64,000 nucleotides of DNA, taken from NCBI RefSeq assembly GCF_037975245.1, contig NC_092573.1:924001-988000 (forward strand). The letters run 5' to 3'. Below, in pieces: positions 9,601 through 61,787 of the stretch. Made by a program: the position numbers and the translations under genes. Each line of letters opens with the position of its first letter. Position 1 is the first letter of the stretch. Source of the DNA: Apostichopus japonicus. Its lineage: Eukaryota > Echinodermata > Holothuroidea > Aspidochirotida > Stichopodidae. The notes beneath the pieces were generated by a model. It searched no databases, was not told the origin of the DNA, and was given only the letters and a program-made list of their open reading frames with translations.

Positions 9601-12600
9601 TTATCTTTACCTTTTCCAATGCAACAGCCAGTATTTCTTCTTCTCCTTCTGCTTCTTCTAAAATCTCTTTACTTTGAGCTTCTGTAAGCGAATTCACAGG
9701 TTCAACCACTTTACCTAAGGTGAATGAAAAATAACATAATAACATCAATCTCTCAACTGTACTTCCATCAATAAACTCTATGAAAGATACTACTACAATC
9801 TAACACATAAAGGCAGTGTAAATGAACCTACTTTTCACAACACAAACATTTCTGTCAGTTTCTCCACCAATGGTTTACACAATATAAATATTCAAGAGGA
9901 TATTAATTGGTAACATTTAACAAAGAAAAGAAAAATTGAATCAAACAGTATAAATATTCAAGAGGAAAGTAATTAGTAACATTGGACGAAGAGAAAAAAA
10001 CTTGAATCAAACAAAGGCAAATTTACCCATTTTTTCATTCTTTTCTGTTAGACATTTCTGACTAGTTGATGTAATGCAGAACCTTACACTGTCTTGTAAC
10101 ATACACGACACAGCAACAGGTAAGTCAAAATTCTACCTTACTTTGTCCCCTTACGATATTTTTGCTGCCAAACTGACTTATTACATAGCATAATTAATTG
10201 GAAATGCTTCACAAACATACACTGACAAAACTATTGCAAATGTAAAACTTTCAAATTCCAAATTTTGTGAGACACATACATTAGCTTTTTCAGCTTGTAA
10301 CATCTTCCATTTCATTAAACTGACATTTTCAAACCAAAGAAAGCATTAATATAGTGCAGAGAAATGGGGTTACCAAAAAAAGGTCAAAGAAAACGCAGGA
10401 AAAACGTTACAATGGAATGTAACAAAGATACATAAAACCTGACTCAAAAAATATCACATGAAATGTTTGATCTATTATTGAATTAAAACAGGAAGATATT
10501 TTTTTACCCATTTCTAATATTGCAGGATCACAATCTTGAATGTTTGGTTTAGGCAAACTCTTCATTATTTCTTCGCTTTGATTGGTTTCTTTCGTATCCA
10601 CCCCCTTCATGACTACTTTGACCACTTCTGGTTTGTTCTCCTTTTCGCTATCTGCCCTTTCTCTTCGGTAATTCTTGCCAGTTGTTATCCTCCTCGAGGA
10701 AGCTTGTGGAGAGTGTTTGGATTTTCCCGATGAAGGCCGACCTCTATTCGGTTTGCCTCTGTGGACTGTTTCCCAGCCCTCTTCATCTGGTAAAAAAGAA
10801 AGCCAAAAAAAAAAATGAATAAATAAATAAAATTAGTAGAACATTCTGACGCAGAGCCTTTTTCTGGAATCTTATGTCCTTTGTTCTTAATAACCATCCA
10901 CGGCTAGAGATGGCCTACAGAACATATCCACATTGCTAGGCGACTCGATAGTTTGCGCTGGAGATGAGTCGACGATCATGGCAGGGCTGTTTCTTGCTTG
11001 TCGCATGTTTCACTATACTGATACTGGCAGCTATTGCGATAGTAATATTGGATATCAGTTAATGCCAATACCAGCTCATCTGTAGTCTACGATGATAACA
11101 AAAATGCTACGAACGCAGCATAACTTGAAAATACCTAAGGCAAAGTTATAGTTTCAAACGAACATATGTTCCAGGATATAATTTTGTGTTCAAATTTTGC
11201 ATGCAGTGTTGATGGCTCTGAACTTTGTCTCCATTAAAATACTAAGGTTCCTGCAATAAGAAAACTAAAAAAAACTGTTGTACATCTTTGCACTCAAGTG
11301 TAGCAATTTGCCCAATTTGTCCAGCAATTGGCAATGTGATAACTGAATCAATTAATCCCCATGTTTCAGCCCACCAAACTTTGTTCATGCAAAAGCAATA
11401 TATGAAATAACAGAGAATTTATGGGGAAAAAATTCTCCAATTTTGTGTTAAACAATCTTATCAAGTTATTGAAATTCCTTACCATCTTTCTGGCTTTCTT
11501 TAACTGTGTCTTCGTTGGCTGCTTTCGTTAATTCTTCATTTTTTCTGTTCTTTGGATCATCAATTAGCTGCATGGCTCCAGGACTAGGAGGGGCCATGAC
11601 AGGGACTGGTTTCACAATCTTCTTGCCCTTCACCCTGTCAGCCCAACTCGGCTCATTTGAAGCTAACCCAGATGGCTGTGCAGAGCTACAAATATGACCG
11701 ATGACATTTATAACCAAAAATGCTGAACATAGTAAAATTCAAATTCGTTATTTTCTTATTTTTCAAAGACATTTTTCTTTTACTCCCTATCAACTTCACT
11801 TCAACCAGAAAGCTCATAGGCTTTCTGATTTCCTTATTTAAACTTTTTGTAAACTCTGTTACCTGATTGATAGAGAAACTGAGTTAAATTTGTCTAAGAA
11901 CTATTAAGTCAGAACCAATGCATTAGAGAGTCTGATTTGTAACACCCATTTGTAGACAACACCTAAATCACTGATGAGGATTGTACAATGCATAAGTCAT
12001 ATGCCAAACACAGCACAGAGTCTTCCTGTGTGGAAGTCACATAAATGCACACTGTACAGATTATGGACACTTTAATACATAGTTGAGCTAACAAAATCTG
12101 TACTGCCACCAACCCTTTAATGAATGAAAGCTACGAGGCTTCATGTTATCCATTTGTGAAATATTTACAAAAAGTTTGACTTCTGCGACCACTTGAGGTC
12201 AAGTACCGACCTGGATTTATCTTGTCCAGAGAAGTTAAGACTTCTACTGACTGGGCTAGGGGTTTGTCTCTCCCTTGCATCCACAGGAGAGGCAGTTCCC
12301 GTCAGCCGATGAGGGGAAGACTTTCGGACTTCCCATGCTAATGAACGAGGTCTATAAATGAGGAGGTTTTAAAGATGAAGTAAATTGTCAGGATTTTTTT
12401 AATTTTTCAAACGTAAAAAATTTAAATTGTACAACTTTATTTCCATGTTCTCAGACAGGTGAACCATCTGTCTGCATTTGGTGAACATTTCTGCATTGTG
12501 TTGTTGAACACAAGGAGGCAAGCCTTCTATCTGATTTAGCCTTATATGTGTATTACTAAATCCATTTTGTACTTGAATAAAGGTCACTTGAGATTGATAG

Positions 12601-15600
12601 TTTGGAATTCTATGTGCACTAAGTAATGTACAATGAATTGCATTTGTCAAAGAAATGGAGGTGGCTACCGACATCTACAGTATTATAAGTAATATATACA
12701 GTATGTACGTACTATACAGACTATTTTATCATGTAGTGAAATAGGCATATACTATAGTTAGTACATCAAGCTAATGTATGTCCTATAATTAGTGTAATAC
12801 TATATAGGGCAGCATGCATGGCAACCAAAACAGGGCTCTGACACTGACAGAAAGACAGGAACAATTGACAAAAACAAGCAAAATAGTTTTTGTTCTTACA
12901 GTACTTCATAAAGCATAGCTACTATAACAGAACCTATCATATTAGAAGTGTTCAATTATCACTATTAATCAAAAATCAAATTTCTGATCGGAAGCTAGGA
13001 GCTTAACATAGTGCCTAAATACACTAAACTATTACAAAATCCAAATCCTCACATGACCTATAAATAACAAACTACCCAGCTTCAGTGTCAAGCCCAAATC
13101 TGGCCCAACATCCTACCTGAAGTCAAAGTCCTACTTGAAATTGTACCTTACCCGAAGCTAAATAAAAAATGGACCTTCAGAAATCTTATCATGATTCAAA
13201 CTATGCCAAACCTGAGTCCACATTCTATCAGAAAAGGATCTCTACCTGAACCTATGATATCAACTGAACCTTCACCACCCTGAAACTAAACCACCCCACA
13301 CCTACACCACCAGAACCTTCACCACCCTCATTAACCTACACCACCCTGAACCTCAACCACCCTGAACCTCAACACCCGAACCTATGCCTCCCCAAACCTA
13401 CACCACCGAACCTTCACCACCCCAAACCTTCACTACCCAAAACCTTCACCACCTGAACCTTCACCACCCTCCTGAACCTACACCACCCTGAACCTCAACA
13501 CCCTGTACCTACACCACCCGAACCTATGCCTCCCCAAACCTACACCACCCCAACCCTGCACCACCCGAATCTCCGCCACCTATCACTCGAACTTATCAAC
13601 AACCAAGCCCCTGAACTGAATTTATAGGAACCTATTACTATACCACTCCTAGGCCTAGGCCCTACCTGGATCAATGTTTAGCTACTGTATACCAGACACC
13701 ATGCCTGGCCTGTTTTTTTTAGCCATCCAATGTTTTTCGATTCACTTCACTACACAAGATATTTTTTTAACATTTCAAGACAATTTCAGATGCTGATTTT
13801 CATCAAAAGCATCACATTGTGTCGGTTTGATTTAAACTGCCCTTTGTGTACTAACTTGAAATCATTTGAGAATTATATTATATTATACTTGATATGCATT
13901 ATCTTCTACATGACCCATAAGCAAATGAATTTCTTTAGCATAATTTATTCATTTCTTAGAACAAATTGTGATGGTTTGGTGTAAATGCCCTTCGTGTTCA
14001 AACTTGAAATCATTTGGGAATTATCCACAATAGTGATTCAAATGAATTGCTTTAGGATAAATTTATTAATATGACATGTTCAACCATAGTGCTGTTTGGC
14101 AAGGGTGGAGGCGTGGGGGGAGGGGGGAGGATGGAGGGGGTGTAGCCATGACTCAAGCAGGGTAGATAGTGCAATTAGCACCAACATGCTAGATATTGTA
14201 CATTTGCTTTGAATACATACATACCATAGTACAAAGTGTCAACATGTATCCCATGCATTAGGTACACTGAAATCATATCTCTTTGTTATAAGAGCATTTT
14301 GTATAATTTATTTGTATTTTTCTTTCATTAAAAATTCTAAATGATTACAATAGTACTTTATTAAATACAATATCCGATTGAAGATGTATTTAAATGGCAC
14401 TATCTATACCCTAGTAACAACAGCTTTGGCGACGCATGTACAAAACATTAATAACAAGAACGTCAAACACAACTAACTGAAAGCGGAACAAAACAGAAAA
14501 AAAATAGATTAGGGAGAAGGATGATGAGGTTAAACATGAAGGCCAAACCTTCTACTGGTAGGCATCTTGGCATCACCAGGCCAACTCGGTGTTCTGTTCT
14601 TAGCTGGAGATGACAAAGACTTCCTCACCTCCCAAACCAGAGATGTTGGTCTAAAGAGAGTTGTTAGTGGTTAAAACAGAACAGAAACACACAAAGAAGA
14701 AAAAAAAAAGTAAAGAAGAAGAAATGACAAGAAAGTGTTGAAATCATTAAAGAAATAGCAGCTAACTGAACAAAGTACAGTTCTATCTACATTGTGCAAA
14801 ATTGAATACGCATGATCTTCAACTAACTCCGTCAACAAAATTATCAAAATTTTTCAAAATGAACAAAAAGCTTTAAATTCTAAAACTGAATCTCCTAAGT
14901 ACCACATGTTACTGTCTACCTACTAATAGCAAAATTAGATATGGTAGCATTATGCATGAACTTCAAACTAGCTTCCAGAACTACTCAAGTGTTTACAATA
15001 TCGATTGGATGCAAAGTTCAACCTGTTTGATTCAAACTAGCATCCAGAACTACTCAATTGTTAAATAACAGCGACTGTATGCAACATTTAACCAGTTTGC
15101 CATGGCATCTAACCAAAGTCCAATATTCCCTTTATTTTTTATGAATACTGTAACTAATCTATGCCCCTCCCCCCCCTCCCTCTTCCCCTTCCCGCCCACT
15201 CTTCAGTGAAAGTGTGTCTTACTGCTTGATCACATAATATGCTTGATAACAAGTCCAGTTTTCTCCAAAGCAACTTTTTATACCAATATGCATAGCAAAT
15301 GGAAAATGTCAACATCAATCGCACTGAGATTATTTTGCATGTAAATTCAGAACACTGCTAGACTTTGATGCACTAGAGAGACACTCACTTGATCAGATAC
15401 ACAAACATACACTAATGCTAACAAGGGAACATCCAATGAAACACGTAACAGTGACAGAGTAGTAATCAAAGGTTTTCTTTTTATATGCTGTTGTCAAATC
15501 TATGTGATGTATTTGATTGCTAGAAAATGTGACTATGAATTAACATACTTTTCTTCATCTTTAAAAGACTTTGCCTGATATTCTTTGCCAATTTTTCTTT

Positions 15601-17403
15601 TTTCTATTTTCTTCTTTTTCCCTTTTTTTTGTCAATCTTAACATTACAGTAAAACCAAGTTAAAATATTGTTAAAAACAAAAGCTAAACACAACAAGGGC
15701 CACAAATCATTTTCTGATTACATGTTTATTATTTATCATATGTACATGTGAGTCAGAACTGAAAGAGAGAAAGCTCACTTTAAAGTTTAAAGTGAATTTT
15801 CTTTGAAGTACAAACTATTAAAGAAAACTTATAAAAGTAATATTTTTACTAAAAATTCCTCCACAGCAAAACAAGTTAGGCCATGCAAAGAAAAACACAG
15901 CAATGTGCAAGCAGCATGCTATAACTGTACTCAGTCTAATCTGAGAACATGCAACAATGCAAAGGAACACAGCAAGCAGTGACCGAGGTCTAACATACTT
16001 GTTATTCTCGTCAGCATTCTCAAAATCTTTCTGGACGTTGATCCTCTTAATCAGAGCATCAAAATCTTGTGTTGCACTTTTTAATATCATAATCACTTCC
16101 TGTAACAGAAGAGATCAAGAAAGAGAAAGTTGAATATAAAATTATGTCTTGAACAAAAGGAGAAATATTAAATAAGTCAATCGTTCTATGATGAAGATTA
16201 TCAAACTTGTTTAAGATGAGGGCGGTTTATACCCTGAAATCCTACTGGAGTTAGAAATCAGTTTACAATGCATGCATATTCTTATTTTTCAAACATGAAT
16301 ATTCAAGATATGGCTTGTAATCCTGAGGTCGAATGTACAAGTATTACTCTATAGCCTAGTTATATGCCCGCCTGGGAATTGTTAAAAGTCAAGGAACTAA
16401 AGAAAGTTTTTACAATCTAAATTCTTTCCAATGCATAAAAATAAAGAGATATCTGTTCATGGCTTTTATCCTTATGCAGAGAGAAACCCTCACCTTGCAT
16501 TCTACGATGCTCTCGTCGACTTCACACGTCTGGTAAATTTCATCCACAGCTCTTTGTAAATTGTCAAAGAGGAATGCCCAATATCTTGCTCTCATATCCA
16601 CTTTCGTCATTCTTTGTTTCTCTGACCCACTGCTGCTCTTGTCCCCAGCACGACTCTCTCCACTGGATGAGCTTTTGTTGTCCGATGAAGACATCAGCTT
16701 CTTTGGCGATTTGGGAACTTCTGATTTGCTCAGTGTGTGAGGTCTGTTCTTCCTCTTGGGTCTCACTTGATGACCTTGTGATCAAATCCAAAGACATTGT
16801 GTCTCATTAAGTGAACAATAAAGCATCATCTTCATTGAAAACAATGCAGTACTGACATATTAAGGAATCTGAATAGCAAGGGTGCTGGTTACATGGTGTG
16901 GTAGAAGTGTAAAAGTTTAGATGTTAATATGAGGAATTTTACCTTGCCTATGGCCATCACTGTCATCGCTGTCTTCTACGGGAACATTCCAAGTTATCAG
17001 ATTGCGGGCCATACGTCCCTCTTCCTTTACTATGGACCTGACATTATCAAAGCTTGATGTACGTTGGTAATTCTATAAGAGAGAGATGCGAATTAGATGA
17101 TATTTTAACTTTATTTATAACTTTATTCAAATCACTTTACACATCTTAGACCTGTAACAATACAGCGGTAGGTTCTTATTGTCTTTTATGAAAATAATGA
17201 AGGCAACAATGTACAAAGTCTAAAACCAAATCATCACTACACATATACTCTCTACGAACCTTTCCCTTTTGGCGATGGCCACCACCACTGCCATCAGAAC
17301 GCTTCCCTTCCGATCCATTGGAAGCACCACTTGAGCGTCCTTTATTTCCAGAGTTTGACCGCCGGCGTGAGGACGACTCACTCATGCTGAAATTCTCTTT
17401 ACC
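668..17403 (-). CDS. SCAPER: SCAPER (S-phase cyclin A-associated protein in the ER), 5' part, 19 coding exons
   Basis: Human SCAPER binds cyclin A/CDK2, is ER-associated, and has been linked to cilia and tubulin mRNA autoregulation. Coding exons in gene order: 17385-17260, 17072-16943, 16774-16494, 16099-15999, 14650-14549, 12351-12211, 11685-11483, 10786-10508, 9714-9611, 8992-8753, 8338-8160, 7596-7485, 7305-7165, 6505-6350, 5613-5471, 2459-2378, 2237-2082, 1588-1487, 864-668. All phases agree, giving about 991 residues so far. Diagnostic segments: YQRTSSFDNVRSIV (exon 2); RARYWAFLFDNLQRAVDE (residues about 147-164); PSWADRVK (exon 7); EEGWETVHRGKP (exon 8); HMHEKLSSPSRKR (exon 11); KKAQEEEAK-ANEIAFINSLEA (exons 13-14); and a C2H2 finger (residues 886-908). 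Residues about 630-840 are a Lys/Glu/Arg-rich coiled coil, and exons 9-10 are acidic. The chosen start lies 18 nt inside an exon whose acceptor ends at 17404, so an untranslated exon lies upstream. The exon 1 donor (GTTCGT) is weak and is the least certain junction. Confidence 0.95.
2082..2237 (-). CDS. SCAPER: SCAPER exon 17: end of coiled coil and first half of the zinc finger
   Basis: The exon has an acceptor at 2238-2239, a GTAAGT donor at 2081-2076, 156 nt, phase 0 at both ends. It encodes a basic/acidic helix beginning HDETRRRHSQLMEQ and ends FCSLCNVL. The two Cys (residues 886 and 889 of the model) complete a finger with His902 and His908 in the next exon (1588-1487: VYLLSHLRGRKH). The spacing is C-x2-C-x12-H-x5-H, as in U1/matrin-type fingers. 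Human SCAPER has the same finger. The finger is therefore split by an intron of about 490 bp. Confidence 0.93.
3049..3611. mobile_element. hAT-like MITE with 8-bp target-site duplication
   Basis: The left end TAGGGATGCACCGGA is repeated as an exact inverted copy at the right end (15 bp). The 563-bp element is flanked by the direct repeat AAATAAAA at 3041-3048 and 3612-3619, an 8-bp target-site duplication typical of hAT transposons. The right half contains clustered CCGGCCGGAT motifs, a subterminal repeat pattern common in hAT elements. There is no transposase ORF, so it is non-autonomous. Confidence 0.85.
4342..4510. repeat. 45-bp minisatellite, about four copies
   Basis: The unit begins CAATCTGCTACAAACCAGA and contains GGAGGCGGGGCTTGAGTC. 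Copies are nearly identical and the last is partial. Because 45 is a multiple of three, both strands carry open repeat-encoded ORFs (15-residue periods). These are artefacts of the repeat. Confidence 0.9.
4990..5158. repeat. 31-bp minisatellite, about five copies
   Basis: The unit is approximately CCCAATCTACTACCATACAG plus ATGTGCCTAGG. Copies differ by a few substitutions and the fifth carries a small insertion (GCTAG). It lies in a SCAPER intron. Confidence 0.85.
9884..10015. repeat. Two-copy tandem duplication of about 68 bp
   Basis: The segment with TATAAATATTCAAGAGGA, then AATTGGTAACATT and TTGAATCAAACA, occurs twice in a row with substitutions. It lies in the SCAPER intron between exons 8 and 9. 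The rest of that intron is plain AT-rich DNA. Confidence 0.8.
12211..12351 (-). CDS. SCAPER: SCAPER exon 6: duplicated 'WEVRKS' exon, copy B (orthologous copy)
   Basis: The exon is 141 nt, phase 2 in and phase 2 out, with an acceptor at 12352-12353 and a GTCGGT donor. It encodes PRSLAWEVRKSSPHRL, a Ser/Thr/Pro-rich linker, then SRSLNFSGQDKS. Both ends match the human segment just before SWADKV, so this is the copy most directly comparable to the vertebrate exon. It joins exon 7 (11685-11483) by splitting a Ser codon. Exon 5 can join exon 7 by the same split codon. Confidence 0.85.
13260..13600. repeat. Degenerate CCTACACCACC-type minisatellite
   Basis: Short degenerate units such as CCTACACCACC, CCTTCACCACC and CCTCAACACCCT with GAA spacers run for about 340 bp, strongly C-rich and G-poor on the plus strand. 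It lies in the 2.2-kb intron between the two WEVRKS exons of SCAPER. No frame is open across it. Confidence 0.8.
13808..14090. repeat. Diverged tandem duplication with a 148-bp period
   Basis: The block containing AACTTGAAATCATTTG (from 13853) recurs near 14001. The flanking TTGTG...GGTTTG and CAAATGAATT...CTTTAG...ATTTATT segments also repeat in order. It lies between the two WEVRKS exons of SCAPER. Confidence 0.7.
14549..14650 (-). CDS. SCAPER: SCAPER exon 5: duplicated 'WEVRKS' exon, copy A
   Basis: The exon is 102 nt, entered and left in phase 2, with an acceptor after a pyrimidine-rich tract at 14651-14652. It encodes PTSLVWEVRKSLSSPAK and ends MPTSR. The next exon (12351-12211) opens with the near-identical PRSLAWEVRKSSP and later carries SRSLNFSG, which matches the single human exon (PTSLAWEVKK...RRSLNFGG). 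This exon therefore looks like the extra copy. Because its length is a multiple of three and its phases equal those of its partner, it can be included, skipped or swapped without a frameshift. The donor is GTTTGG, weaker than consensus, which fits regulated use. Confidence 0.75.
14965..15105. repeat. Two-copy tandem duplication of about 68 bp
   Basis: TTCAAACTAGCATCCAGAAC followed by TACTCAA, then a GATTG-GATGCAA block and AACCTGTTTG, appears twice with substitutions. It lies in the SCAPER intron between exons 4 and 5. Confidence 0.7.

Positions 17404-20441: not shown

Positions 20442-34956
<14,515 letters not shown>

Positions 34957-54300: not shown

Positions 54301-61787
<7,487 letters not shown>

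What the first reader, a model, noticed from the sequence alone, without database searches (positions are those of the whole stretch)
12211..14650. Tandemly duplicated, phase-matched exon pair in SCAPER: candidate mutually exclusive exons
Exons at 14650-14549 and 12351-12211 both start by completing a split codon and then encode PxSLxWEVRKS. Both are phase 2 to phase 2 and multiples of three (102 and 141 nt). Human SCAPER has one such segment. Duplicated, phase-compatible neighbouring exons are the classic substrate for mutually exclusive or cassette splicing, so the linker after the N-terminal domain could vary between isoforms. The 2.2-kb intron between them holds repeats that could form RNA structure.
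Basis: partly seen in the sequence, partly recalled or inferred. Interest (0 to 1): 0.7.

Follow-up and report, generated by a model that had tools for sequence, protein, structure and literature searches.

The report
Duplicated SCAPER exon, possible cyclin-docking switch
In this genome one small exon of the SCAPER gene exists as two old, still conserved copies side by side, only one of which carries the site that binds cyclin A in the human protein, so choosing between them in splicing could switch that binding on or off; whether the cell does so has not been tested.

Summary
Exons 14650-14549 (102 nt) and 12351-12211 (141 nt) of SCAPER (minus strand; one locus found in a 671.6-Mb genome) are phase 2-2 and homologous: 0 of 5000 shuffles reach their alignment score. 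Nine of 11 residues match although 13 of 33 nucleotides differ, so both copies are old and constrained. Either completes the SCAPER_N domain. Both keep WEVRK and a CDK-type S-P-x-K/R site; only exon 6 carries RSLNF, aligned with the cyclin A-binding RSL of human SCAPER. Exchanging the exons would therefore remove cyclin A docking.

Mutually exclusive splicing is not shown: intron 5 is long, the donors look U2-type, and both exons together stay in frame. A 14-nt perfect complement between intron 4 and the end of intron 5, the longest of 156 intron-by-acceptor pairs, would loop out exon 5. That favours exon 5 as an optional exon, with strict exclusivity as a sub-case. Exon 5 has the longest AG-free tract of 13 acceptors, and a strong decoy acceptor follows it. 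No RNA data or second species were available. A known kind of event with a sharp, testable consequence.

The parts
15999..16099 (-). SCAPER exon 4, upstream exon, part of SCAPER_N; its donor CAA|gtatgt has the weakest U1 pairing of 14 SCAPER donors
14549..14650 (-). exon 5: extra copy, 102 nt, phase 2-2
14620..14634 (-). WEVRK in exon 5
14599..14610 (-). SPAK, CDK-type S-P-x-K site in exon 5; no RxL cyclin motif found in the 4-5-7 peptide
   Evidence: patterns recalled
12211..12351 (-). exon 6: copy that keeps the whole human-like segment, 141 nt, phase 2-2
12321..12335 (-). WEVRK in exon 6
12306..12317 (-). SPHR, CDK-type S-P-x-R site in exon 6
   Evidence: pattern recalled
12231..12245 (-). 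RSLNF, aligned with the cyclin A-binding Arg199-Ser200-Leu201 of human SCAPER
11483..11685 (-). exon 7, downstream exon (PSWADRVK)
15553..15566 (-). candidate docking-like element in intron 4 (TTTTAAAGATGAAG)
12367..12380 (-). its complement CTTCATCTTTAAAA, ending 15 nt before exon 6
14530..14541 (-). CTTCATGTTTAA just after the exon 5 donor, similar to the element before exon 6 and able to pair with 15553-15566 (-10.9 kcal/mol)
14477..14548 (-). 72 nt from the exon 5 donor to the best-scoring decoy acceptor in SCAPER introns 1-13, with a branch-like CTAAT about 40 nt from the donor (by eye)
14653..14761 (-). 109-nt AG-free tract before exon 5, the longest of 13 acceptors

Best explanation
An old tandem duplication copied the SCAPER exon that encodes the end of the SCAPER_N domain. 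Exon 6 kept the whole segment: domain end, CDK-type site and cyclin A-docking RSLNF. Exon 5 kept only the first two. I infer that exon 5 is an optional, regulated exon. By default exon 4 joins exon 6, helped by pairing of intron 4 with the 3' end of intron 5, which loops out exon 5. In some cells exon 5 is used. If it replaces exon 6, SCAPER keeps a complete SCAPER_N domain but loses cyclin A docking; if it is added, the protein has two WEV/CDK-site modules and one docking motif. Shown: duplication, phase, constraint, motif distribution, complementarity. Inferred: alternative use, the looping, and the effect on cyclin A binding in this animal. The confidence covers alternative use in any form, strict mutual exclusion included.
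For: Homology: 0 of 5000 shuffles. Constraint: 9 of 11 residues kept with 13 of 33 nt changed; NG86 gives dN 0.13 and no dS value (-1), read by me as saturation; of 73,722 neutral simulations with at least 13 changes, over six distances, none keeps nine residues. Either exon completes SCAPER_N (PF16501): the match runs to profile position 93 of 98 with 61.0 bits (4-5-7) and 64.1 bits (4-6-7), and both exons' first residue falls on human-chain residue 176. Cyclin motif: human RSL 199-201 (passages of PMC10403363 and PMC11203295) aligns with exon 6 RSLNF; the RxL pattern (recalled) has no match in 4-5-7. Pairing: a 14-nt run, longest of 156 intron x other-acceptor pairs (next 12) and of the 12 pairs of the same layout (next 8); 2 of 300 shuffles of intron 4 reach it; the 14-mer occurs exactly only at these two places in the window. 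Exon 5 has the longest AG-free tract of 13 acceptors (109 nt) and the fourth weakest donor of 14 by U1 pairing.
Against: No transcript evidence; one species only. The pairing was noticed in a listing before it was tested. Runs of 14 or more also occur in 5 of 2012 overlapping windows of the same geometry on this strand (the real site may be among them) and 7 of 2012 on the other, and another perfect 14-nt inverted repeat lies inside intron 6. Intron 4 is the second longest of the 13 introns, which favours long runs. The duplex energy of the exon 6 flank with intron 4 is ordinary (61 of 300 shuffles at least as low). The exon 5 flank pairs with intron 4 unusually well in energy (0 of 300 for 100 nt, 6 of 300 for 60 nt) but not in longest run (28 and 20 of 300); I ascribe this to purine/pyrimidine tracts. 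Exon 5's acceptor scores low (4.1; only exons 3 and 7 lower) but exon 6's is 7.0, and exon 4's donor is weaker than exon 5's. Exon lengths divisible by three are common here (6 of 13), so phase alone says little.
Confidence: 0.57

Rival explanations
1. Strict mutually exclusive splicing (the first reader's view; a sub-case of the best explanation, its odds counted within those): each transcript carries exon 5 or exon 6, never both or neither, enforced by competing RNA pairings or protein factors.
For: Meets published preconditions; in a Drosophila X-chromosome survey such candidates were judged very unlikely to be reannotated as constitutive or differentially included (PMC3228551 passage). One domain end can be filled by only one copy. 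A second, weaker complement to the same intron 4 element lies just after the exon 5 donor (-10.9 against -16.1 kcal/mol). MXE clusters tend to show pairing of flanking with internal introns (PMC6071210 section 3).
Against: Intron 5 is 2197 nt, the donors are GT sites without a U12 look, and both exons together stay in frame. Both pairings enclose exon 5, so neither would obviously favour it. The exons differ by 13 codons and align weakly in their second halves. MXEs with known structure lie in folded domains (PMC5740500 section 7), whereas most of each exon lies after the SCAPER_N match.
Confidence: 0.27
2. Both exons are constitutive: SCAPER of this lineage simply has two WEV/CDK-site modules in a row, and exon 5 adds 34 residues to the linker.
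For: Both exons keep frame in combination, both are constrained, and a linker should tolerate a repeat. Needs no regulation.
Against: If the WEV segment packs once into SCAPER_N (not tested), the second copy would be expected to drift, yet both are kept. The 14-nt complement, the long AG-free tract and the nearby decoy acceptor would be coincidences.
Confidence: 0.33
3. Exon 5 opens an unproductive or shortened form: its donor joins the strong decoy acceptor 72 nt on, or is not used and polyadenylation follows in the intron, giving an early stop.
For: The decoy is the best of 490 intronic AGs scored and outscores 12 of 13 real acceptors. Joining exon 4 or 5 to it gives a stop as the second codon; read-through of exon 5 stops after six codons; AATAAA lies at 14362.
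Against: Donor to branch-like site is about 40 nt, under the 50 that PMC5740500 treats as steric interference. AATAAA occurs five times in intron 5, unremarkable in AT-rich DNA. It would not explain the conserved exon 5 peptide unless the short protein is used.
Confidence: 0.07
4. Exon 5 is a decayed copy no longer spliced.
For: No transcript data to exclude it; weakish donor and acceptor.
Against: Intact frame and splice sites; nine of 11 residues kept under heavy nucleotide change.
Confidence: 0.03

Closest known systems
Candidate mutually exclusive exons from tandem exon duplication (WebScipio-type candidates; Dscam, 14-3-3 zeta, Mhc)
   Same: Neighbouring internal exons, same phase and frame, homologous at the residue level, length difference within the default 20 codons.
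   Different: Splicing pattern unknown; lengths differ by 13 codons; second halves diverged; the copies are not interchangeable because only one holds the cyclin motif.
Docking-site/selector RNA pairing (PMC6071210, abstract and section 3 read)
   Same: An element in the left intron is perfectly complementary over 14 nt to one next to a duplicated exon, with a weaker second partner in the internal intron.
   Different: No demonstration, no conservation data; the second partner lies after exon 5, so both pairings enclose exon 5 rather than pointing to one exon each.
Alternative exons that carry binding motifs in disordered segments (PMC3437557, outline and abstract seen)
   Same: Exon choice would add or remove a short binding motif (RxL) and a phosphorylation-type site.
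   Different: Here the alternative arises from a duplicated exon that also completes a domain; use is unproven.

Membership tests
SCAPER (gene) | SCAPER_N domain PF16501 | tested here: met
   162.6 bits against a cut-off of 25
SCAPER (gene) | Similarity to human SCAPER through the N-terminal segment | tested here: met
   8bpo_s2, E 4.2e-33
SCAPER (gene) | Cyclin A-binding RxL after the N domain | tested here: met
   Sequence met in exon 6 only; binding not tested
Mutually exclusive exons | Neighbouring homologous exons of like phase and length | tested here: met
   length limit from PMC3228551
Mutually exclusive exons | Exactly one exon per transcript | not testable with these tools
   No RNA data held
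Mutually exclusive exons | U2/U12 conflict, short intervening intron, or frame break on joint inclusion (sufficient, not required) | tested here: not met
   2197-nt intron and open joint frame; donors judged by eye. 484 human clusters are put down to other mechanisms (PMC5740500 section 7)
Docking/selector splicing | Complement between a single docking element and elements beside each variable exon, beyond chance | tested here: inconclusive
   14-nt run best of 156 pairs, 2 of 300 shuffles; duplex energy ordinary, 61 of 300; second partner weaker
Docking/selector splicing | Pairing conserved among relatives | not testable with these tools
   No relatives held; none found in viral contigs or prokaryote genomes

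The most novel reading that the evidence does not exclude
An exon duplication turned the cyclin A docking of SCAPER into a splice-controlled switch: exon 5 in place of exon 6 gives a SCAPER with a complete N domain and CDK-type site but no cyclin A docking, separating its cell-cycle role from tubulin mRNA control, with a competing intron pairing as the selector.
Probability: 0.22. Interest if true: 0.6.

Novelty: new member of a known kind. Interest (0 to 1): 0.42.

Why it matters
In human cells the N-terminal part of SCAPER is largely dispensable for tubulin autoregulation and the RSL mutant had no effect on it (PMC10403363 passages), so the cyclin A role and the tubulin role can be separated. 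A natural exon choice that removes only the cyclin-docking motif would be a ready-made separation-of-function form, and would show how an exon copy with part of the motif content becomes regulatory.

Tried and rejected
Chance resemblance of the two exons: rejected. Paralogous gene, retrocopy or third exon copy: none found in the own genome, best candidates only, or in the window. Known RNA family in 11400-16800: no match at gathering threshold. Tandem repeat 13264-13566 as a structural element: listed, not pursued. Strong pairing energy of the exon 5 flank with intron 4 (0 of 300): set aside as purine/pyrimidine low complexity, by my reading, without a separate test. Similarity of 100-nt exon flanks: of six pairs only downstream-of-5 with upstream-of-6 stands out (6 of 1000 shuffles); upstream-with-upstream and downstream-with-downstream, which a simple tandem copy predicts, do not (177 and 772 of 1000). 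Distant-branch-point enforcement as in OGDH (PMC7969005, search listing only): I see no support for exon 6, whose AG-free zone is 81 nt. Relatives: none in viral contigs or prokaryote genomes. Naming the species from the assembly size: one paper search, no hit. SCAPER with mutually exclusive splicing: one search, four papers, each naming SCAPER once, not read; I make no claim of absence from print.
Full report
What is there. The window lies at C13:924001-988000 of an unnamed 671.6-Mb genome in 35 contigs; that it is an animal is my inference from its genes. The minus strand carries SCAPER: the SCAPER_N domain scores 162.6 bits against Pfam PF16501 and the N-terminal part matches human SCAPER, PDB 8bpo_s2, with E 4.2e-33. 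I placed 14 exons between about 17.4 and 6.35 kb by reading AG/GT borders. The gene probably runs on: an ORF at 1630-1313 has a zf-met match just under Pfam's cut-off (20.3 against 21.2 bits). The two exons in question are 14650-14549 and 12351-12211.

Is the resemblance real. Yes. After removing the K that exon 4 helps to encode, the local alignment score is 54, reached by 0 of 5000 shuffles. In the window each is the other's best non-self match. A search of the own genome with a 186-residue segment gave five matches of five scored candidates, one for each of exons 3-7; no paralogue, retrocopy or third exon was found.

Age and constraint. In the 11-codon block 13 of 33 nucleotides differ but 9 of 11 residues are the same; NG86 gives dN 0.13 and no value for dS, which I read as saturation. 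In neutral simulations over six distances none of 73,722 runs with at least 13 changes kept nine residues. The block was chosen because it is alike, so this test leans towards constraint; but the match begins exactly at the splice site in both exons. The duplication is therefore old and both copies have been kept as protein. Of six comparisons of 100-nt flanks, the two that a simple tandem copy predicts to be alike are not (177 and 772 of 1000 shuffles as high).

What each exon does to the protein. The SCAPER_N match runs to profile position 93 of 98 whether exon 4 is followed by exon 5 (61.0 bits) or exon 6 (64.1 bits), so either exon can supply the domain's end. Both then give a CDK-type site, SPAK or SPHR (pattern recalled). 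The cyclin A-binding motif of human SCAPER is Arg199-Ser200-Leu201 (passages of PMC10403363 and PMC11203295); it aligns with RSLNF of exon 6. The 4-5-7 peptide has no match to the RxL pattern (pattern recalled). In human cells the RSL mutant had no effect on tubulin autoregulation and residues 2-350 were largely dispensable for it, so such an isoform could keep that role.

How it might be spliced. Nothing enforces mutual exclusion by itself: intron 5 is 2197 nt, the donors are GT sites without a U12 look by eye, and all tested joins keep the frame. This does not exclude it: of 629 human clusters five showed U2/U12 conflict and 57 possible steric interference, and 484 were put down to other mechanisms (PMC5740500 section 7). 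Intron 4 holds TTTTAAAGATGAAG (15566-15553), perfectly complementary to CTTCATCTTTAAAA (12380-12367) just before exon 6. Among 156 combinations of a SCAPER intron with another exon's 60-nt acceptor flank it is the longest run (next 12), and among the 12 with the same layout the next is 8. Shuffles of intron 4 reach 14 in 2 of 300; overlapping windows of the same geometry in 5 of 2012 and 7 of 2012 on the two strands. Against it: intron 4 is the second longest intron; the best duplex energy of that flank is ordinary (61 of 300); another perfect 14-nt inverted repeat lies within intron 6; there is no comparative evidence. The pairing would bring exon 4 to exon 6 and loop out exon 5. A similar but weaker element (14541-14530) follows the exon 5 donor and also encloses exon 5. 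This is why I lean to exon 5 as an optional exon rather than a symmetric choice.

Further signs around exon 5. It has the longest AG-free tract of 13 acceptors, 109 nt; exon 13 has 95 and exon 6 has 81. Its donor is the fourth weakest of 14 in U1 pairing; exon 4's is the weakest. The best-scoring decoy acceptor among 490 intronic AGs lies 72 nt after its donor and outscores 12 of 13 real ones. The scoring matrix was built from those same 13 sites, so the scores are rough, and the decoy's position was not tested against chance. Splicing into it from exon 4 or 5 gives a stop as the second codon. A decoy this close could hinder use of the exon 5 donor; this is inference.

Verdict. Observation confirmed; duplication and constraint near certain; alternative use of exon 5 a little more likely than not; strict mutual exclusion about one in four. 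It is a known kind of event, made more interesting by the cyclin motif.

Noticed in passing
61180-61458: On the + strand an exon of an NAD isocitrate dehydrogenase alpha-like gene (Pfam Iso_dh, E 1.3e-18; PDB IDH3 alpha chains, E about 3e-17). I recall human IDH3A lying near SCAPER on the same chromosome arm, which would be old linkage; not checked.
   Followed up: partly
27103-27495: A + strand ORF that reads like part of a multi-pass membrane protein (TM6SF-like by my recollection); the 79 residues given had no Pfam match at E 0.1.
   Followed up: partly
14362-14548: After exon 5: stop on read-through, best decoy acceptor of the SCAPER introns scored, and AATAAA at 14362; a possible truncated SCAPER form.
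   Followed up: partly
13264-13566: Tandem repeat with units of about 16 nt in intron 5, G-rich on the transcribed sense.
   Followed up: no
28600-30200: Several strongly similar ORF fragments in both orientations, suggestive of inverted or dispersed repeats.
   Followed up: no
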